This document shows, one piece after another, positions 2 through 30,045 of a stretch of 33,153 bases of DNA (within the stretch, counting starts at the first letter, position 1; each line of letters opens with the position of its first letter). The position numbers and the translations under genes were made by a program. Source of the stretch: a virus; the IMG/VR virus record IMGVR_UViG_3300027778_000007, positions 1 to 33,153 of that record; one strand, 5' to 3'. The notes below the pieces were generated by a model that saw nothing but the letters and a program-made list of their open reading frames with translations, made no database searches and was not told where the DNA came from.

Positions 2-3000
2 ACTAAGAATGAAAGCTTTCGTCGTACGGCAGAACTGTTTCGTCAACAGGGTATTAAGAACTACTACTTTATCCTGCAAATTAACAACCCTGCCCTGATC
101 GGGGTTAACCCACGTGATGAAGCCAACCTGAGTAACGAACAGAAGGTCTGGATTCACAACGAGTGCAAAGAGAACTTCTGGTACTGCCTGCGTGAAGTAC
201 TGTGGTTAAAAGCAGAACAACCCTTTAAAGCCAACCGCGGCAACGTCTCCTTTATTTGGGCGTACCTCAACCACATTACCACGTACAACATCATGCCACG
301 TCAGCAGGGCAAGGCCCAAGACGTTAAGAGCAAGATTCGTGTTAAACAAACCCTCCCCTCTGACCCGGTATGGAAAGAGATGGGAGACATTAAAACTGGT
401 GACACCATTATCGACCCCAATGGTCAGGAGTCTCTGGTCAATGGCGTATGGCCTCAGGGCTACATGCGCACTTATGAAGTCGAGATGAGTGATGGTCGTA
501 AAACCCGTGCAGCCACGGACCACATGTGGCGTTACCGCACCAACGCGGACTGCGGAGAAAACAGCTGGAGTGAAACCACCACGGCTTTCTTCCTGGAAAT
601 GTTGCGCAACCCGAATTATGCCAAGGATCCTATCCAAATCCCGCTGATTGAAAATCTCGAGAACAGTCGTAAAAACCGTGACCGACTGGGATACCTCATG
701 GGAGCGTTTCTCAACGCTGAAGGTTCTGTGTCAAGCATTCCTTTACCGAATGTGGACACGAGCTACCAGGATGAGTTACAGGCGCTTCTCGACCGGGATG
801 TGCTGGATAAGTTCAAGGTAGTTTGTAGTGACGGTCAGTTAAGCATTGTGCGAGCCGATGGAACTAACTTTGAAATCAACAATGACATCGGTTTACCAGT
901 TAACCTGTTGGACAGCGATCTGCAGAGTCGTAAAGAGTTACTGCACGGTGTGCTGGATGCTTTGGGTGAAATCGGTACTGATGGTATTCTGATTAAATCC
1001 AAAGACACTATCGGTATGCGTCAAATCCAGTATCTGGTGCGGAGCCTGGGCGGTACTGCTCGTTACGAACGCAAGATCGAGAAGCTGATTATCACGTTGC
1101 CTGATGAGGTGCCGTATTTCCGTTTCCGTAAAGAACTGGTGCCGGGTTACAGCAACAAGCTGTTCGTCAAGAAGGTGTCGTTTGCGGGCGATCGTCCTTG
1201 TGTGTGTATCGAAGTCAACAACGATGATTCCACCTATATCACCGATGACTTTATCGTTACCCACAACACAGTGTCGGTGCAGGTCATTGACTTCTGGTTA
1301 ACGTACATCATGGGTCGTAGCTACAAGACGCACCTGGTGACGCTGAAGTCAGATAACCGTGCGCAGTTCATTGAAGCGATCAAGAACATCCGTACGCAGA
1401 TGCCGAGCTATTTGGTTAACCCAACCTACAAGGATAAGGACAGCGGTAACTACTTGACCTACCGTAGTTTTGGTGAGGGTCAAGCCAACGTCTTAACCAT
1501 CTCGGTTCCGCAACAGTCTGAAGCCGCCGCAGGTGACTTGGGTCGTGGTCTTACGGTGGGAACAACCAACTTCGATGAACCCGGTTACATTAACTACATC
1601 GAGTCCATTGTCAACGGATGTACACCATCTGCCCTGACTGAAATGGATAACATGCGTGAGAAAGGTTTGCCTTACGCCATCAACTACATTACTACGCCAA
1701 ACACCATCAAGCATCCGTCTGGTGCGTACATGTACCGCAACATCATGAACTCCACTGAGTGGCGCGAGAAGTTCTTCGACTGCTACAGTGAAAGTCATCT
1801 GGTGCACAAGTTGATTAAGCGCAGTCCAGTCAAGACTACCTCTCCATCGGTGGCCATGATTTACAACTACCTGAAGTTAGGTAAGAGCAAGGACTGGGTA
1901 ACCCGCACTATCGACCAGCTGAAGCTGACGTTGTCCAAGGCCAAGATCGACTTACTGTTGATGTGGGTGGAAGACGGTGAGGACCGGTTGTTTGATGACG
2001 TCACGCGTGAGAAGTTAAGTGACAACAAGCGCGATGCGGTGTGGAGCAAGGAGTACCGGGAAAGTAACCTGTATGTTGACTTCTTCGTAACCAAAGAAGA
2101 ACTTATCAAGATGTGCAGTCCGGACCACAATGACCACATCATCATCGGGTGTGATACCTCGTCGGCTATCAACAAGGATGCCTGTACGGTGGTGTTACGC
2201 AGTATGGTGACCGGTGACACCATTGGGGTGGGTCGTTATCCTCTGGCGTTCCTGGATGACGTGGCGGACATTGTAGTGGACCTGCTGGAATCGATTCATA
2301 ACAGTATGCTGATTATCGAACGTAACTACGCGCACCACTTCATTGACAAACTGCTGATCACCCTGCAAGCCAAGGGAATGGATCCGTTTAAGAAGATGTT
2401 TAACCGCATCTACAACGATCCTGTTAAGTATGCCTCGCAGTTCGAAGAAGTTAAACGGACACGTGCTGGTGGTCGCACCAAAGAGTTCTATCTGCGCTTC
2501 AAGGAGTTCTTTGGCTTTAACACAACTGCGTCGACGCGTAAAGAGCTGTATGACTTTATTCAAGAAGCGGTGGCGGCTACGGGCGCAGGTCTGCACTACG
2601 ATAAACTGATTGACGAGATCATTGCGCTGAAGATCAAGAACGATCGTATCGACCATGAACTGGAAGGCCACGATGACTTGGTAATTGCGTGGTTGTTGAG
2701 CTACTGGTTTATCAAGGTAGGTAACAGCAAAACTTATTACGACATCAGCCCACATATGGCGTTGACACGTACTAAGAATCTGTTGGCGGGTGGCGAGAAG
2801 AGTGTATTCGATGATCCGAAAGTCTTGGACATGATCGACCAAGTTCGTAAGCGTATTATCAAGCTTACCGAGGAGTACATCAAGACCAACGACAATATCT
2901 TGGCAATGCGTTTGGAATTTGAGATCAACAAGCTCACCAAACTGTTACCAAAAGAGGCGAAGCGCATTCACACCATCGATACCACCATTGAACAAGCGAA

Positions 3001-3046
3001 GGTTGAGCGCAACCAACGCATTATGAAACACCGACAAGCAGCATAA
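2..3046 (+). CDS. terL: Terminase large subunit (TerL), intein-containing, 5' partial
   Basis: This is the DNA-packaging motor: an ATPase that drives DNA into the prohead and a nuclease that cuts the concatemer. The frame is open from base 2, so the true start lies upstream; the ATG at 293 is internal. Walker A reads PRQQGK then TVSV, interrupted after the lysine by an intein (314-1267). The Walker B-like stretch TTNFDEPGY has its Asp codon at 1574. The C-terminal RNase H-like nuclease shows the three expected acidic positions: Asp in IIIGCDTSS (2153), Glu in LIIERN (2318) and Asp in EGHDDLV (2672 or 2675). About 696 residues remain in this window after splicing. The next gene starts 13 bases downstream behind a GAGGGAA ribosome site. 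The motifs make the family assignment secure; kinship to phiKZ-like TerL is inferred from context. Confidence 0.92.
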   Translation, partial: TKNESFRRTAELFRQQGIKNYYFILQINNPALIGVNPRDEANLSNEQKVWIHNECKENFWYCLREVLWLKAEQPFKANRGNVSFIWAYLNHITTYNIMPRQQGKAQDVKSKIRVKQTLPSDPVWKEMGDIKTGDTIIDPNGQESLVNGVWPQGYMRTYEVEMSDGRKTRAATDHMWRYRTNADCGENSWSETTTAFFLEMLRNPNYAKDPIQIPLIENLENSRKNRDRLGYLMGAFLNAEGSVSSIPLPNVDTSYQDELQALLDRDVLDKFKVVCSDGQLSIVRADGTNFEINNDIGLPVNLLDSDLQSRKELLHGVLDALGEIGTDGILIKSKDTIGMRQIQYLVRSLGGTARYERKIEKLIITLPDEVPYFRFRKELVPGYSNKLFVKKVSFAGDRPCVCIEVNNDDSTYITDDFIVTHNTVSVQVIDFWLTYIMGRSYKTHLVTLKSDNRAQFIEAIKNIRTQMPSYLVNPTYKDKDSGNYLTYRSFGEGQANVLTISVPQQSEAAAGDLGRGLTVGTTNFDEPGYINYIESIVNGCTPSALTEMDNMREKGLPYAINYITTPNTIKHPSGAYMYRNIMNSTEWREKFFDCYSESHLVHKLIKRSPVKTTSPSVAMIYNYLKLGKSKDWVTRTIDQLKLTLSKAKIDLLLMWVEDGEDRLFDDVTREKLSDNKRDAVWSKEYRESNLYVDFFVTKEELIKMCSPDHNDHIIIGCDTSSAINKDACTVVLRSMVTGDTIGVGRYPLAFLDDVADIVVDLLESIHNSMLIIERNYAHHFIDKLLITLQAKGMDPFKKMFNRIYNDPVKYASQFEEVKRTRAGGRTKEFYLRFKEFFGFNTTASTRKELYDFIQEAVAATGAGLHYDKLIDEIIALKIKNDRIDHELEGHDDLVIAWLLSYWFIKVGNSKTYYDISPHMALTRTKNLLAGGEKSVFDDPKVLDMIDQVRKRIIKLTEEYIKTNDNILAMRLEFEINKLTKLLPKEAKRIHTIDTTIEQAKVERNQRIMKHRQAA
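314..1267 (+). other. Intein with LAGLIDADG-type homing endonuclease inside TerL
   Basis: A 318-residue in-frame insertion splits the TerL Walker A motif between GK and T. The N-terminal Hint part contains MGDIKTGDTIIDPNG and a block-B-like TRAATDHMWRYR with the expected Thr and His. The C-terminal end reads DDFIVTHN, giving the penultimate His and terminal Asn of inteins; the first C-extein residue is Thr. Two endonuclease helices are visible: GYLMGAFLNAEGS (about 689-727, Glu where Asp is usual) and LLHGVLDALGEIG (938-976). The first intein residue is Ala (GCC at 314), not Cys or Ser, which implies a non-canonical splicing route. The P-loop is a common intein site because it is conserved and tolerates little change. 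Joining 313 to 1268 restores a normal P-loop. Confidence 0.9.
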
Positions 3047-4571: not shown

Positions 4572-5119
4572 AATGGTTCACCTACCGGGATCACAAGGGT
4601 TTTCGGGCTTAGTCGCTGTAACAAGGAACAAGCCTCACGATAACGTCGTTGGTGGTGCTCGAACTTCTCTGGGTTTTGGAATTCTTTCTCAATAACCTCG
4701 AGGTTCTTTTTCTTCTTTAGACGTCCGATGTAAGTCGGATGCGAAATCTGCAACAGGTACACCACGTCCGGATGGTTGTGGTTGTTGTGATTCAGCACCG
4801 GCATCATACCCATGGTTTCCTGGTAGACCATGGAACTAATAAAGTTACGATCACTGATGACGATCTTGCCAGACTCTAACGCAGGGCGAATAATCGCGTT
4901 CCAAAGATAATCACGGTTCTCTTTGTAAAGACGATACAGCTCGCAGCTGTTAGTGGATTTCGCTGACAGGAAGTCACGGATCTTCTGACCAGATGGATGC
5001 CCCATAAACGGTTCAGATACGGTAAGGATCTCTTTGCCGGTTTTCGCATACAGCTTTACCAGACTTTTAATAAACAGGGATTTGCCTGCGAGATCCATAC
5101 CTTCGGCTACGACGTACAT
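4568..5119 (-). CDS. Thymidylate kinase-like (dTMP kinase) P-loop protein
   Basis: A 183-residue protein with the layout of dTMP kinases, which phosphorylate dTMP to dTDP for phage DNA synthesis. The start is set at the ATG at 5119 because AGGAG lies six bases upstream; a longer reading from 5149 lacks such a site. The P-loop is AEGMDLAGKS (residues 5-14; the family usually has EGxDGxGK). The EPFMGHPSGQKIRDFL stretch matches the family REP...iR region, and SDRNFISSMVYQ matches the DR(Y/F) motif, with Asn at the aromatic position. A Lys-rich segment (RLKKKKN) sits where the LID usually is. The altered P-loop and DRN leave open a related deoxynucleoside kinase. The next gene overlaps it by four bases. 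Confidence 0.82.
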   Translation of the reverse strand: MYVVAEGMDLAGKSLFIKSLVKLYAKTGKEILTVSEPFMGHPSGQKIRDFLSAKSTNSCELYRLYKENRDYLWNAIIRPALESGKIVISDRNFISSMVYQETMGMMPVLNHNNHNHPDVVYLLQISHPTYIGRLKKKKNLEVIEKEFQNPEKFEHHQRRYREACSLLQRLSPKTLVIPVGEPL

Positions 5120-14333: not shown

Positions 14334-14658
14334 TTATCATATTTATTAATTTTTAATTGCGTTATGTAATCTTATGGATTCCTTTGGGGGAAACCCCAGG
14401 AAGGGGGCTATTCACCTTACTTACTATATATTACTATTATTACTAATTACACTAGGTAATAGTAAGGTGAATCATAGTAAGAGAGACAAGAACACTACTA
14501 CCTACTCTAACTCCGTAAAAGGGGTTAGGGAGAGGTTAACTTGAAAAAGATTATAGATCTATATTACTAAGGTGTAGTAACCGTAATAAAACAAAACTCT
14601 ATTGCTTATTAAGAGTAGGGTGTGTAATCAATTTAACAAGGATAGGAGGAGATGTTTC
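14334..14658 (+). other. Non-coding leader/control region with hairpins
   Basis: No gene is supported in these 325 bases. They hold a G/C hairpin with a GAAA loop (14379-14402), an 11-bp inverted repeat TTCACCTTACT/AGTAAGGTGAA (14411-14421 and 14461-14471) around an A/T-rich core containing TATATTACTATTATTAC, several ACTACTA-like units, and the early-type promoter at 14558-14574. The inverted repeat could be an operator or an RNA stem. It probably isolates and controls the 14659 transcription unit. Confidence 0.6.
14558..14574 (+). promoter_or_regulatory. Early-type phage promoter motif
   Basis: TCTATATTACTAAGGTG is nearly identical to the elements before phuZ and the shell gene. The core TATATTAC is the known phiKZ early-promoter signature. 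It lies about 85 bases before ATG 14659 and downstream of a terminator, as expected for the start of a new transcription unit. Confidence 0.75.
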
Positions 14659-20398: not shown

Positions 20399-20475
20399 TT
20401 TGACCCTTTACCGCGCCATATCACGTTTACTGCCCATTATTTACTTTGTTCAAAGTCATCCCTTTAGATGATCGG

Positions 20476-20506
20476 GCGGGGGACAAATGCTGCTTATGTC
20501 TCCCGC
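20476..20506 (+). terminator. Intrinsic terminator before the tRNA cluster
   Basis: A 10-bp stem GCGGGGGACA/TGTCTCCCGC with one G-U pair is followed by TCTTTTTTAT. It separates the protein gene at 19781 from the tRNA island. Confidence 0.85.
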
Positions 20507-20548
20507 TCTTTTTTATAATGCGTAGTAGTTAGTATATTATGTTTCTCT

Positions 20549-20624
20549 TGCCCCATAGTTCAGTTGGTAGAACGGCGCACTGTTAATGCGTATGTCACTG
20601 GTTCGAGTCCAGTTGGGGCAGCCA
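20549..20624 (+). tRNA. tRNA-Asn (GUU)
   Basis: A complete 76-base cloverleaf. The acceptor is TGCCCCA paired with TGGGGCA. The D arm is GTTC...GAAC, and the anticodon arm GCGCA/TGCGT has loop CTGTTAA with anticodon GTT. The T arm is ACTGG TTCGAGT CCAGT, with discriminator G and an encoded CCA end. The sequence AGTATATTATG just upstream may be its promoter. Confidence 0.95.
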
Positions 20625-20630
20625 CATTAT

Positions 20631-20683
20631 GGAAGGGTCGTGGGTAACCACCTCAGGTCGTAACCTCAAACCACGGCACTTCC
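20631..20683 (+). other. Inter-tRNA hairpin spacer or decayed tRNA
   Basis: GGAAG at 20631 pairs with CTTCC at 20679 around GTGG/CCAC and CTCAGGTCGTAACCTC segments. The closing stem resembles a tRNA acceptor, but a T-loop GTTCGA sequence is missing. It may be a processing element between the tRNAs or a degenerate tRNA. Confidence 0.35.
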
Positions 20684-20695
20684 GCCCGATTATAT

Positions 20696-20785
20696 AGAGA
20701 GTTGGATGAGCGGTCGAAGTCGCTTCCCTGCTAAGGAAGTGTGGGAGTAATTCCACCGAGGGTTCGAATCCCTCACTCTCTGCCA
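20696..20785 (+). tRNA. tRNA-Ser (GCU)
   Basis: A complete 90-base class II tRNA. Acceptor AGAGAGT pairs with ACTCTCT. The anticodon arm CTTCC/GGAAG has loop CTGCTAA with anticodon GCT. A long variable arm of about 20 bases (TGTGGGAGTAATTCCACCGA), a T arm GAGGG TTCGAAT CCCTC, discriminator G and an encoded CCA complete it. It reads AGC and AGU codons. Confidence 0.95.
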
Positions 20786-20806
20786 CTTTTCACATAACGA
20801 GATAAT

Positions 20807-21064
20807 ATGAACGTCACTATCTACGGTAAAGAAGCCTGCGCTTTCTGCAAACGCGCAAAAGACCTGTGTGAAGCCAAAGGCATCGAACACAACTATATCG
20901 ACTTCGTTGAAACAGGCATGACCAAAGCCGATCTGGAAGCGATTGTTGGTAAGCCAGTAAACACGGTTCCTCAGATCTTCGTAGATGGCGTGCATATTGG
21001 CGGTTACGTTGACTTAGCTGGTTTGGTAGCAAAACAAGAAGTAGCGGCTAAAGCTGCTGAATAA
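20807..21064 (+). CDS. grx: Glutaredoxin
   Basis: An 85-residue glutaredoxin, which reduces disulfides using glutathione and can supply electrons to ribonucleotide reductase. It has the active-site CAFC at residues 11-14, the cis-Pro segment NTVPQIF, and the glutathione-binding GGYVDLAGL. The length is typical for a single-domain glutaredoxin. It lies 21 bases after tRNA-Ser with an ACGAG before the ATG, so it may be read from the same transcript as the tRNAs. No ribonucleotide reductase gene is visible in this window. Confidence 0.93.
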   Translation: MNVTIYGKEACAFCKRAKDLCEAKGIEHNYIDFVETGMTKADLEAIVGKPVNTVPQIFVDGVHIGGYVDLAGLVAKQEVAAKAAE

Positions 21065-21127
21065 TATGTATTTCTAGAACACTTCATTTCAAGATAAAGC
21101 ACGTACTGGCTACCGCCACTGCAATTT

Positions 21128-21360
21128 GTACGGGCTACCCCTTGACGCTCTCTGAGTGGGTTCGGGTTATTGTTATTTGCGACGGTTGATTAACGATTCA
21201 CAGTTTTTGATTACAAGCCGATCTTATCGCACAGTCACTGATGAGGTTACTCTGCTGTCGCAAACCCTATTACTTCTCCCGAAGTGATGATTCCTTGCCC
21301 ATCGTCCGTGTGGGAACAACAAGGATAAAATATGAGAATGGGAACTTTCACGCCCATGGC
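21128..21360 (+). ncRNA. Candidate structured RNA between glutaredoxin and gene 21423
   Basis: No gene fits in 21065-21422. Several helices can be drawn: TTTGCGAC/GTCGCAAA (21176-21183 with 21257-21264), ACTTC/GAAGT (21272-21285), CCTTG/CAAGG with CCCA/TGGG inside (21293-21324), and ATGGG/CCCAT (21338-21357). A tract of ACTACTA units (about 21370-21405) follows and leads to the ribosome site of 21423. It could be an independent RNA, a long structured 5' leader, or an upstream domain of the RNA region after 21745. Confidence 0.5.
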
Positions 21361-21422
21361 TCTAGCGGACACTACTACTAACTACTAAACACTACTAATC
21401 ACTAAACAGAAGGTTTTTTATT

Positions 21423-21701
21423 ATGCCGCAATTAAAGATAACAGAAACCTCCGCTAATGGCGAAGTAATCGTCGATGGTGTTGTGGATCGCACTTGTTAC
21501 TACAACATGGGTGAAAATCCAATTGTGGACTTGTTGCTTGAACCACGGAAACGCGACAAAGATTGCACCTTACCTAAAGACGCTGTCTACCGCGTAATGG
21601 GTAACGGCGTGATCCAATACGTTTACCGTCACCAGTCAGCGTACCTCATCAACGACAGCGGGAAGACCATTCAGGTAATCTGGAACGCCTGCAAAGATTG
21701 A
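21423..21701 (+). CDS. Hypothetical protein, 92 residues, within the RNA island
   Basis: A small soluble protein with beta character (NGEVIVDGVVDRTCYYNMGE) and a C-terminal half (VYRVMGNGVIQYVYRHQSAY) with two short repeats of strand-turn type. AGAAGG precedes the ATG and a terminator follows. It is enclosed on both sides by structured non-coding sequence. No family is recognised; an RNA-binding partner of the flanking RNA is a possibility only because of position. Confidence 0.75.
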   Translation: MPQLKITETSANGEVIVDGVVDRTCYYNMGENPIVDLLLEPRKRDKDCTLPKDAVYRVMGNGVIQYVYRHQSAYLINDSGKTIQVIWNACKD

Positions 21702-21708
21702 TGTTTTT

Positions 21709-21739
21709 TTAAGGTGAGTACTATTATTGCTCACCTTAA
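21709..21739 (+). terminator. Intrinsic terminator after gene 21423-21701
   Basis: A perfect 10-bp stem TTAAGGTGAG/CTCACCTTAA with an 11-base loop, followed by an A/T-rich TTAATATTCTTTT. Confidence 0.85.
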
Positions 21740-21761
21740 TTAATATTCTTTTACTGAAATA

Positions 21762-21900
21762 CCAACAGTTATGTTGGAGAGTTGTACGCTAAGTAATCAA
21801 AATACTTATCGAACCACTGTCCCAGTGTTTCAGCGAGTGCTTCACTTTCCCTGAGCGAACGGGGTAACACGGATTGTTATCCCATTCGATTTATACTCGC
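21762..21900 (+). ncRNA. Structured segment upstream of the large-RNA promoter
   Basis: Helices follow each other without gaps: CCAACA/TGTTGG (21762-21777), AAGTA/TACTT (21791-21807), CACTG/CAGTG (21815-21827), then GCGAGT/ACTCGC (21833-21838 with 21895-21900). The last encloses CGAA/TTCG and GGGGTAACA/TGTTATCCC (21861-21883). The order is nested and free of clashes. It may be a separate RNA, or the 5' part of a longer form of the RNA at 21940 made from an upstream start. Confidence 0.5.
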
Positions 21901-21915
21901 CTAAAAGATTTCAAC

Positions 21916-21932
21916 TCTGTATTATTAAGGTG
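21916..21932 (+). promoter_or_regulatory. Early-type phage promoter motif, before the large RNA
   Basis: TCTGTATTATTAAGGTG differs at two positions from the copy at 14558. It is preceded by TTTCAAC, as the phuZ and shell-gene copies are preceded by TTTCAAG. No credible protein start follows for 700 bases, so the product would be the non-coding RNA at about 21940-22530. Confidence 0.65.
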
Positions 21933-21939
21933 TAATGAA

Positions 21940-22530
21940 CAAACCATTTTGATGGATGTCCTGCGGTCGCCCTGGCGACATGAGGTTCGGTATCCGGCGG
22001 CTACTGCTGAGCGGCACGTCGCCTGAACTGATCTACTAAGCGATCCCTGAGCTGGGGGTGTGATTGCCTATATAGAGCGAATCGCATATGCGGAAGAGTA
22101 GAAGAACGTTGCGGCGTGCGCCGCTGTTGAGGACGTTCTCCCTAACTGCTAGGGCGACCACAGGACCTTCATTGAAAGTTCATTATCTCTCTCAAAGATA
22201 ATAACAGAGTGGAATAAGGATGTTCCACAATGTTTCTAACCATTAAAGGTAAATATGTTTTTCATAGCTTATTTACCCTTACTGGGTAAATTCCAGTTGA
22301 CGGAACAAACGGTGTTTAATCTCGTGATAGCTTCTATCAGAGGTTACATTATAAAAGAATCTTCCTATGAGCACTCCCCAGGCTCGGAAGTTATGACGCA
22401 ACCATTCGCACCGAAGCGAAGATCCCGAATAGCGTGGCAACATGCCATATGGGGTTTCCGATCGATGTGCTGACTGGGGATTCTTTTAAGCCTGACCGCC
22501 AAAGGCGTGTCAGGCACACCTTCTTATTTT
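21940..22530 (+). ncRNA. Large ornate non-coding RNA candidate, about 590 bases
   Basis: The sequence folds into nested helices along nearly all its length. Domain 1 is closed by a 16-bp stem with one mismatch (21958-21973 with 22151-22166). It contains GGCGAC/GTCGCC, GCGAT/ATCGC, and AGAACGT/ACGTTCT around GCGGC/GCCGC (22103-22139). Hairpins follow at 22182-22202, 22209-22228, 22271-22291 and 22317-22346. Domain 2 is closed by a 10-bp stem (22352-22361 with 22479-22488). It holds AGCAC/GTGCT, CGGAA/TTCCG and the hairpins TTCGC/GCGAA and TGGCA/TGCCA. An intrinsic terminator ends it. Size, ornate folding and position beside tRNAs recall GOLLD and ROOL RNAs of phages, but I cannot assign it to either. 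Confidence 0.7.
22490..22515 (+). terminator. Intrinsic terminator of the large RNA
   Basis: GCCTGAC/GTCAGGC (7 bp) is stacked on CGCC/GGCG with an AAA loop and followed by ACACCTTCTTATTTTTTT. It closes the non-coding unit ahead of the phuZ promoter. Confidence 0.88.
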
Positions 22531-22574
22531 TTTGTCTTTTTAAATAATCTTTAAATCACTGTTATTTTTTCAAG

Positions 22575-22591
22575 TCTATATTACTTAGGTG
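22575..22591 (+). promoter_or_regulatory. Early-type phage promoter motif, before phuZ
   Basis: TCTATATTACTTAGGTG, the copy taken here as the reference, lies 54 bases before ATG 22645 and is preceded by TTTTTTCAAG. The core TATATTAC equals the phiKZ early-promoter signature. Confidence 0.8.
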
Positions 22592-22644
22592 AATGTAGTA
22601 CAATAATCGTAACTTAAAGCTTTATTAACAACGAGGTAGTATGT

Positions 22645-23625
22645 ATGTCTGAACTTATGGTCATTGGTTGTGGTGGTACCGGCATCAACATCATGAAAGA
22701 TATGATCGATGCACCGGGGACTCGTATTCTGAAAGAAGCACAGTACCTGGCATTCGACAGTTCTGATAGCAACAGCTCTGATGGTAAATTCGAAGTGTTG
22801 CACATGAACTCTGCTAAGAACCCCGGTCAGAAAGCACAGGGTTCTGGTAAAGACGTTACCCTGAACTTTGAAAACCATGCGCCGTTTATTGCTGAATCTT
22901 TCAAAGTACGCAAGCCAGGTAAATTCTGCATCGTGATCATGTCGGTCGCTGGCGGTACAGGTTCAGGCCAGGGCTTCGCAGTTCTGCGTTATCTGTTGAG
23001 CCGTGGCATTCCAACCGTCGGTCTGTTTGTGCAGGATCACACATCTCTGGTTGAGCGTCGCAACTCTACCAAGATCATGCTGTCGATCTCTAACCAGGTG
23101 CAAGAGCGTTTCCTGGGCAAAGTCATTCCGCACGTACGCATCATCAACGATGAACGTACTCGCCGCGAAATCAACGACGAAGCTGTTCTGAATCTGAATT
23201 ACCTCAGCCTGTTCCTGACTGAGTCAAATGAAGAGCTGGACTTTGAAGATATTTCAAACACTCTGCAATACTCTAAAGTTACCGGCCTGCCGCCAGCGCT
23301 GTCTGAAATCAACTTCCTGACCGACAAAGCAATCGATACCTATACGGGTAAACCGCCGGTGTCATTTGCGACCCTGTTTGATCATCGCGACAATGCGCGC
23401 CCGCTGTTCAAAGATGCAGCCTATCGTGCAACCGGCGTAATCAATCCGGACAACAATCCGCCGAAAGCTGACGTCGTTGTAATGATGCTGGATCACGGCG
23501 AAGCAGTGCAGAAGTTGAAGATTGAACTGGAAGAGCTGGATAGTGCTCAACAGAAAGCCAAATCAACTTTCGTTAAGCAGGAAGACCTCTCTTCTAATGC
23601 CGATGACAGTGGTTTTGACTTCTAA
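22645..23625 (+). CDS. phuZ: PhuZ-type phage tubulin
   Basis: A 326-residue tubulin/FtsZ-family GTPase. In phiKZ-like phages this protein forms a dynamic spindle that centres the phage nucleus and carries capsids to it. The N-terminal VIGCGGTGINIMKDM is the first nucleotide-binding loop, and AGGTGSGQGF (about residues 95-104) is the tubulin signature G-box. The C-terminal tail is acidic (EDLSSNADDSGFDF), as in PhuZ, where it supports polymerisation. The length matches PhuZ rather than FtsZ. The ATG at 22645 follows ACGAGG; the ATG four bases earlier is out of frame. Codons are highly biased, which suits abundant expression. It has its own promoter and terminator. Confidence 0.93.
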   Translation: MSELMVIGCGGTGINIMKDMIDAPGTRILKEAQYLAFDSSDSNSSDGKFEVLHMNSAKNPGQKAQGSGKDVTLNFENHAPFIAESFKVRKPGKFCIVIMSVAGGTGSGQGFAVLRYLLSRGIPTVGLFVQDHTSLVERRNSTKIMLSISNQVQERFLGKVIPHVRIINDERTRREINDEAVLNLNYLSLFLTESNEELDFEDISNTLQYSKVTGLPPALSEINFLTDKAIDTYTGKPPVSFATLFDHRDNARPLFKDAAYRATGVINPDNNPPKADVVVMMLDHGEAVQKLKIELEELDSAQQKAKSTFVKQEDLSSNADDSGFDF

Positions 23626-29861: not shown

Positions 29862-29981
29862 AATTTTTTACCAGCATTACCTATTATATGTACACACATG
29901 CGGGCAACCGTGTGAATCCGGGGTCACCACGCATATTTCGTTATTTACATAACATTTTGCATGTCCCAAAAATATTTCAAG

Positions 29982-29998
29982 TCTACATTACTTGAGTG
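29982..29998 (+). promoter_or_regulatory. Early-type phage promoter motif, before probable chmA
   Basis: TCTACATTACTTGAGTG differs at three positions from the phuZ copy and is preceded by the same TTTCAAG. It lies about 106 bases before ATG 30105, giving a long leader. A capsid gene would be expected to have a late promoter, so this supports an early gene product. Confidence 0.72.
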
Positions 29999-30045
29999 TA
30001 TAAACCATAATGATATTTCATTGACTGCATATCTTATTGTGTTTC

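What the first reader, a model, noticed from the sequence alone, without database searches (positions are those of the whole stretch)
21940..22530. Large ornate non-coding RNA between tRNAs and phuZ
About 590 bases lack a credible gene but are packed with compatible helices, including a 16-bp closing stem over 193 bases and a 10-bp closing stem of a second multibranch domain. They are bounded by an early-type promoter and an intrinsic terminator. Location beside phage tRNAs and the folding style recall GOLLD and ROOL, RNAs of unknown function that form large assemblies. In a nucleus-forming phage an abundant early RNA next to the tubulin gene would be new biology. I do not recognise the sequence as tmRNA, RNase P RNA or a group I intron.
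Basis: partly seen in the sequence, partly recalled or inferred. Interest (0 to 1): 0.9.

Follow-up and report, generated by a model that had tools for sequence, protein, structure and literature searches.

The report
Folded RNA leading small phage gene
Just before the tubulin gene of a giant bacterial virus lies a real, strongly folded 256-base RNA that belongs to no catalogued family, but about a third of the reported 'non-coding' stretch is in fact a small protein gene that appears to share the same transcript.

Summary
21932-22187 ('domain B') is a real structured RNA: fold z -6.3, 39 long-range pairs (0 of 500 shuffles reach this), 98.9% of pairs kept in four related contigs with 4 compensatory pairs, divergence 5-11 times below phuZ synonymous sites, no reading frame, no Rfam match. 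It starts exactly where a phage early-type promoter (TGTATTAT-N6-G) predicts the first base.

22255-22473 is not non-coding. It is a 72-aa gene with a ribosome-binding site, 49% identical (E 3e-20) in a distant relative, dN/dS 0.2-0.4. Its start site lies in a conserved hairpin and its synonymous changes are unusually few, so coding and RNA constraint seem to overlap.

Best reading: one early transcript with a self-closed RNA leader and a small gene, like the 5'UTR-derived ncRNA of phiKZ gene p40, but larger. GOLLD and ROOL models do not match. A second, more deeply conserved RNA ('domain A core') lies upstream and is split in this window by an inserted gene. More distant phuZ phages, including cultured phages EL and FishSpeaker, carry other strongly folded RNA-like stretches upstream of phuZ. 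Transcription and function remain untested.

The parts
21918..21932 (+). Early (virion RNA polymerase) type promoter TGTATTAT-TAAGGT-G; predicted first base G21932
   Evidence: One of only three + strand matches to T[AG]TATTA[CT]-N6-G in 33 kb; AR9/phiKZ early motif with start 6 nt downstream (PMC5312081); a profile built from group 2 phuZ promoters also touches it, weakly (E 0.91)
21932..22187 (+). Domain B: self-closed multibranch RNA; closing stem begins at the predicted first base
   Evidence: z -6.3 and 0/500 shuffles reach its 39 long-range pairs; 98.9% cells paired, 4 compensatory pairs, none in slid controls; stops in all frames; first base paired in the MFE
22209..22228 (+). Small hairpin between domain B and the gene (GTGGAATAAGGATGTTCCAC), absent in L018
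   Evidence: one search lists it as terminator-like, but its T-run is poor
22245..22280 (+). Hairpin that holds the ribosome-binding site (AAAGG 22245-22249) and start codon of the 72-aa gene
   Evidence: Helix kept in the near relatives and, shorter, in L018; z -3.2, -4.7, -6.6, -1.85; one compensatory pair
22255..22473 (+). 72-aa protein gene (ORF72), no known family
   Evidence: L018 homologue 49% identity, E 3e-20, dN/dS 0.2-0.4; profile hits only group 1 and L018; no PHROG, no Pfam match above cut-off
22490..22533 (+). Terminator-like hairpin with a T-run about 10 nt downstream
   Evidence: Sequence; not called by the scan; same layout in L018
22577..22591 (+). phuZ early-type promoter TATATTAC-TTAGGT-G
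22645..23625 (+). phuZ (phage tubulin)
   Evidence: tblastn against PhuZ proteins of 99 phage records
21267..21384 (+). Domain A core, 5' piece (deeply conserved RNA, interrupted in this window)
   Evidence: profile hit E 2.8e-36; helices conserved to L018
21746..21831 (+). Domain A core, 3' piece
   Evidence: profile hit E 1.7e-18
21376..21747 (+). Insertion splitting domain A, present only in this window; carries ORF 21423-21701 (92 aa) and a hairpin 21709-21739
   Evidence: Alignment with four relatives, all uninterrupted; PHROG 8729, function unknown, E 2e-8; no phage tblastn hit
21071..21266 (+). 5' part of domain A, variable in L018, no reading frame in common
21861..21883 (+). Terminator-like hairpin ending domain A, just upstream of the promoter
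   Evidence: a different hairpin at the same place in L018 (sequence)

Best explanation
21932 to about 22530 is one early transcription unit of a phuZ-carrying jumbo phage. Its 5' 256 nt fold into a self-closed multibranch RNA whose closing stem starts at the first transcribed base. The rest is the mRNA of a 72-aa protein whose ribosome-binding site and start codon lie in a hairpin, ended by a terminator-like hairpin. Shown by sequence: the fold, its conservation, the reading frame, the start-site hairpin and the promoter motif. Inferred: that promoter and hairpin act as such. Most likely mechanism (inferred): the 5' domain is a cis-acting, protecting leader of the small gene and accumulates partly as a separate 5'UTR-derived RNA, while the start-site hairpin keeps translation low until it is opened. 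What opens it is unknown.
For: Domain B: z -6.3, 39 long-range pairs, 0/500 shuffles; 4 compensatory pairs, none in slid controls; distance 0.08-0.12 against phuZ dS 0.67-0.85. Promoter motif puts +1 at the first base of the closing stem. No promoter motif between B and the gene. In L018 the same order holds: a long-stem RNA domain (z -5.9), then the ribosome-binding site within about 20 nt, the homologous gene and a hairpin plus T-run. Start-site hairpin kept in all lineages. ORF72 dS (0.31, 0.09) far below phuZ dS (0.85, 0.67). Precedent: phiKZ gene p40 has a structured, stable 180-nt RNA from its 5'UTR (PMC8545117).
Against: No transcript data. L018's 5' domain has no sequence similarity to domain B and a different number of arms, so homology of B rests on position and closing stem only. 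Few sequences: window and L001 are near-identical, as are L002 and L004. Covariation is therefore thin (4 pairs; shuffles reach the pair count in 9 of 500). The start-site hairpin shows one compensatory pair, no better than shuffles. Low divergence could partly reflect recombination of this block among the phages. The L018 match to the promoter motif is imperfect (sequence).
Confidence: 0.5

Rival explanations
1. Domain B is a trans-acting ncRNA in its own right (processed out or terminated early). The 72-aa gene downstream merely shares its promoter.
For: Self-closed 5'-3' stem starting at +1 is typical of stable ncRNAs (general knowledge); very slow evolution including loops; terminator-like hairpin 22209-22228 just after it; other phuZ phages have a self-closed ncRNA upstream of phuZ with its own terminator hairpin and strong covariation.
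Against: In L018 the ribosome-binding site follows the closing stem almost at once and the 22209 hairpin is absent; that hairpin lacks a good T-run; the gene always follows directly in the five contigs that have it.
Confidence: 0.22
2. The whole 590 bases are one large ornate RNA like GOLLD or ROOL, with a short reading frame inside it.
For: Whole-region z -8 to -9; ORF72 synonymous sites constrained; tRNAs about 1.1 kb upstream.
Against: No GOLLD or ROOL match (the ROOL control genomes were also silent); the second half is conserved as protein to L018, while its stems covary little and the consensus fold has a positive (unfavourable) covariation term.
Confidence: 0.1
3. Ordinary mRNA of a small early gene; the 5' folding has no function beyond stability.
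For: A reading frame with a ribosome-binding site and a promoter explain half of the region; structured phage leaders are common (general knowledge).
Against: Domain B evolves 5-11 times slower than phuZ synonymous sites, loops included, with paired changes kept.
Confidence: 0.15
4. Conservation of the block reflects recent recombination among these phages, not selection on RNA.
For: Divergence is low over the whole block 21066-22640, spacers included, and dS varies between neighbouring genes.
Against: It would have to have happened in all three lineages; domain A core is conserved to L018 (distance 0.24-0.31) although phuZ is near saturation there (dS 1.8); compensatory changes exist.
Confidence: 0.08

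Closest known systems
phiKZ 5'UTR-derived ncRNA of gene p40 (Grad-seq, PMC8545117)
   Same: Structured RNA at the 5' end of an mRNA of a related jumbo phage; found both as a stable short species and as part of longer transcripts.
   Different: 180 nt with two stem-loops against 256 nt with a long closing stem and multibranch core; sequence relation not tested; p40 does not lie near phuZ in the phiKZ region read (inferred from tag numbering).
GOLLD and ROOL RNAs (PMC12286853)
   Same: Large folded phage RNAs, often near tRNAs.
   Different: No model match; here a protein gene follows in the same unit.
Structured, start-site-sequestering mRNA leaders of bacteria and phages
   Same: Ribosome-binding site and AUG in a conserved hairpin behind a folded 5' leader.
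   Different: No ligand or partner known; not in Rfam.
Group 2 phuZ-upstream RNA (found here in IMG/VR contigs L020-L032, L036)
   Same: Self-closed structured RNA directly upstream of phuZ, with a terminator hairpin, 15 compensatory pairs of 65.
   Different: No sequence similarity to domains A or B.

Membership tests
GOLLD (RF02032) | Covariance model match | tested here: not met
   No match in the window at E<=10; no record over the cut-off
GOLLD (RF02032) | Assembles into RNA-only cages | not testable with these tools
   Needs cryo-EM or native gels
ROOL (RF03087) | Covariance model match | tested here: not met
   No match at E<=10; no control genome rang either, but gathering and E<=10 Rfam scans also list no ROOL
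GOLLD/ROOL | Encoded near phage tRNAs | tested here: inconclusive
   tRNAs at 20549-20785, but separated by a gene, domain A and an insertion
tmRNA, RNase P RNA, group I/II intron, any Rfam family | Rfam model match | tested here: not met
   Only tRNAs at gathering cut-off; nothing credible in 20400-22700 at E<=10
phiKZ-type 5'UTR-derived ncRNA | Structured RNA at the 5' end of an mRNA, promoter upstream | tested here: met
   Promoter motif, domain B, then ORF72 with ribosome-binding site
phiKZ-type 5'UTR-derived ncRNA | Stable short RNA species seen on Northern blot | not testable with these tools
   No RNA data for this uncultured phage
Start-site-sequestering leader | Hairpin covering ribosome-binding site and AUG, conserved in relatives | tested here: inconclusive
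   Hairpin present in all lineages but only one compensatory pair, not above shuffles
Protein-coding gene (ORF72) | Purifying selection on the reading frame in a diverged relative | tested here: met
   49% identity, E 3e-20, dN/dS 0.2-0.4

The most novel reading that the evidence does not exclude
The interval just upstream of phuZ is a conserved home for large, early, structured RNAs in phuZ-carrying jumbo phages. Unrelated-sequence RNAs occupy it in this phage, in the L020-L036 group, in phage EL and in FishSpeaker, and they act in infection (for example on ribosomes, or on phuZ or nucleus function). They would form a new class of jumbo-phage RNA.
Probability: 0.18. Interest if true: 0.8.

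Novelty: new variant of a known kind. Interest (0 to 1): 0.52.

Why it matters
Non-coding and regulatory RNAs of jumbo phages are almost unstudied; phiKZ has two reported candidates. A locus beside phuZ that carries well-conserved, self-closed RNAs in several lineages, with folded candidates in the cultured phages EL and FishSpeaker, gives a concrete and testable set. The window's own case also shows a folded leader in front of a small gene of unknown function, with RNA constraint that seems to reach into the gene.

Tried and rejected
Single 590-base ncRNA: rejected because ORF72 is conserved as protein. Rfam searches at gathering and permissive thresholds: nothing but tRNAs. I first searched RF01998 as GOLLD from memory; it is a group II intron domain, and was replaced by RF02032. 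L012, which shares an 18-mer, is an unrelated GC-rich contig, a chance match. Known phages, plasmids and E. coli genomes hold no credible DNA match to domain B, and known phages none to domain A beyond chance-level hits. The genome-contig scan for PhuZ found no relative. AlphaFold of ORF72 was poor, pLDDT 55, so no fold search was made. The chimallin search with one distant query was uninformative. A first pair count on domain A used a mis-set structure string and was redone. Phage vB_PQ1 is 99% EL in this stretch and added nothing.

Full report
WHAT THE WINDOW IS. The window is a 33 kb fragment of an uncultured jumbo phage (a virus record) with phuZ at 22645-23625 (closest named PhuZ proteins 38% identical: RisingSun, Joad, FishSpeaker). 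Four contigs in the viral collection carry close relatives: L001 (PhuZ 99%), L002 and L004 (89%, near-identical to each other) and L003 (88%). One more, L018 (231 kb, PhuZ 60%), is a useful distant relative.

THE OBSERVATION. The folding is far beyond chance: z -9.3 for 21900-22540 and -8.1 for 21932-22525. Split into pieces, both the 5' part (21940-22200, z -5.1) and the 3' part (22230-22540, z -7.8) contribute.

THE 3' PART IS A GENE. The reading frame 22255-22473 has a homologue of nearly the same length at the same place in L018: 49% identity over 71 aa, E 3e-20; dN/dS 0.2-0.4. A ribosome-binding site precedes it in every contig (AAAGG; AAGGG in L003; GGAGGG in L018). A profile of the protein finds it only in these five contigs among 13 phage records. 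No phage in the public collection has it, and Pfam and PHROGs give no match above cut-off.

BUT RNA CONSTRAINT OVERLAPS IT. Synonymous divergence of ORF72 is 0.31 (L002) and 0.09 (L003), against 0.85 and 0.67 for phuZ and 0.93 for the glutaredoxin gene. The ribosome-binding site and start codon lie in a hairpin in all lineages, a perfect 12-bp stem in L003. This fits translational control, but only one pair shows a compensatory change, so I count it as suggestive. Recombination of the block could also lower divergence.

DOMAIN B. 21932-22187 contains no shared reading frame. With 500 shuffles its energy is z -6.3, and 39 pairs span at least 160 nt, which no shuffle reaches. Counted on four sequences, 98.9% of pair cells are standard pairs, 4 pairs change on both sides, and slid controls give none. 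Variable sites fall on 20 of 182 paired and 23 of 91 unpaired columns. The nucleotide distance is 0.08-0.12, 5-11 times below phuZ dS. L018 has at the same place a domain with a 26-pair closing stem and z -5.9 but no sequence similarity and different inner arms; homology is therefore positional, not proven.

PROMOTERS. AR9 early promoters read AAATATATATTAT-(6N)-G, and phiKZ and phiR1-37 also start 6 nt after their motif (PMC5312081). In the window T[AG]TATTA[CT]-N6-G occurs on the + strand only at 14560, 21918 and 22577. The second predicts a first base at G21932, and that base is paired in the closing stem of domain B. The third would serve phuZ. No such motif lies between domain B and ORF72, so the two are probably one transcript. 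The hairpin at 22490-22515 is separated from its T-run by about 10 nt and is not a standard terminator, though the layout recurs in L018.

DOMAIN A, OUTSIDE THE REPORTED COORDINATES. Between the glutaredoxin gene and the promoter lies a second RNA-like region. It is continuous in all four close relatives; only the window carries a 370-nt insertion (about 21376-21747) with a 92-aa gene. Its core is conserved to L018 at distance 0.24-0.31, where even phuZ dN is 0.34. Five helices hold (98.6% of cells, 3 compensatory pairs; shuffles reach the pair count in 27 of 500), with stops in all frames. This is the most deeply conserved non-coding element of the locus.

WIDER PICTURE. Many of the more distant phuZ phages from the viral collection (L019-L036) have a non-coding stretch upstream of phuZ with strong + strand folding. 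In one group it is a roughly 230-nt RNA closed by its own 5' and 3' ends, with 65 pairs, 15 compensatory, none of 500 shuffles as good. Phage EL (z -7.9) and FishSpeaker (z -10.0, further upstream, ahead of other genes) also show folded stretches; RisingSun does so only weakly (z -2.0). None is similar in sequence to domains A or B. This may be convergent or rapidly evolving; I do not claim one family.

COMPARISON WITH KNOWN RNAS. GOLLD and ROOL models find nothing, nor does any Rfam family except tRNA. The best functional parallel is the 180-nt RNA from the 5'UTR of phiKZ gene p40 (PMC8545117). I found no paper in the library that reports an ncRNA upstream of phuZ; a 2026 review of jumbo phages mentions non-coding RNAs only once, for phiKZ.

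CONCLUSION. The reported feature is real in its first half and misread in its second. The best-supported reading is a large, self-closed leader RNA on the transcript of a small early gene, possibly also present as a stable separate RNA. Transcription, timing, abundance and function are untested.

Noticed in passing
window 20631-20684: A 54-nt hairpin between tRNA-Asn and tRNA-Ser; 3 of 16 pairs change on both sides among four sequences, so a small structured RNA or processing element.
   Followed up: partly
window 21376-21747: Gene insertion (92 aa, PHROG 8729, unknown function) with ACACTA repeats at its left edge and its own terminator-like hairpin, splitting a conserved RNA that is intact in four relatives.
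   Followed up: partly
L001 about 4845-4871: The loop region of the terminator-like hairpin is inverted relative to the window (ACACGCCTTTGGCGG against CCGCCAAAGGCGTGT).
   Followed up: no
L028 5410-5645 and equivalents in L020-L032, L036: A covarying, self-closed ncRNA of about 230 nt upstream of phuZ, followed by a second RNA-like stretch with its own terminator-like hairpin.
   Followed up: partly
L007 1739-2366 (FishSpeaker) and L033 5409-5914 (phage EL): Unannotated strongly folded intervals (z -10.0 and -7.9) upstream of phuZ in cultured phages, good targets for RNA-seq.
   Followed up: partly
L018 4680-4890: Two degenerate tRNA-like stretches with T-arm motifs (GGTTCGANTCC) that ARAGORN does not call, directly upstream of domain A.
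   Followed up: no
window 293-3046: The large reading frame looks like a terminase interrupted by an intein-like segment (GDTIIDPNGQ...FIVTHNT).
   Followed up: no
window 14560 and 29966-29999: Further early-type promoter matches ahead of ORFs 14602 and 30105.
   Followed up: no
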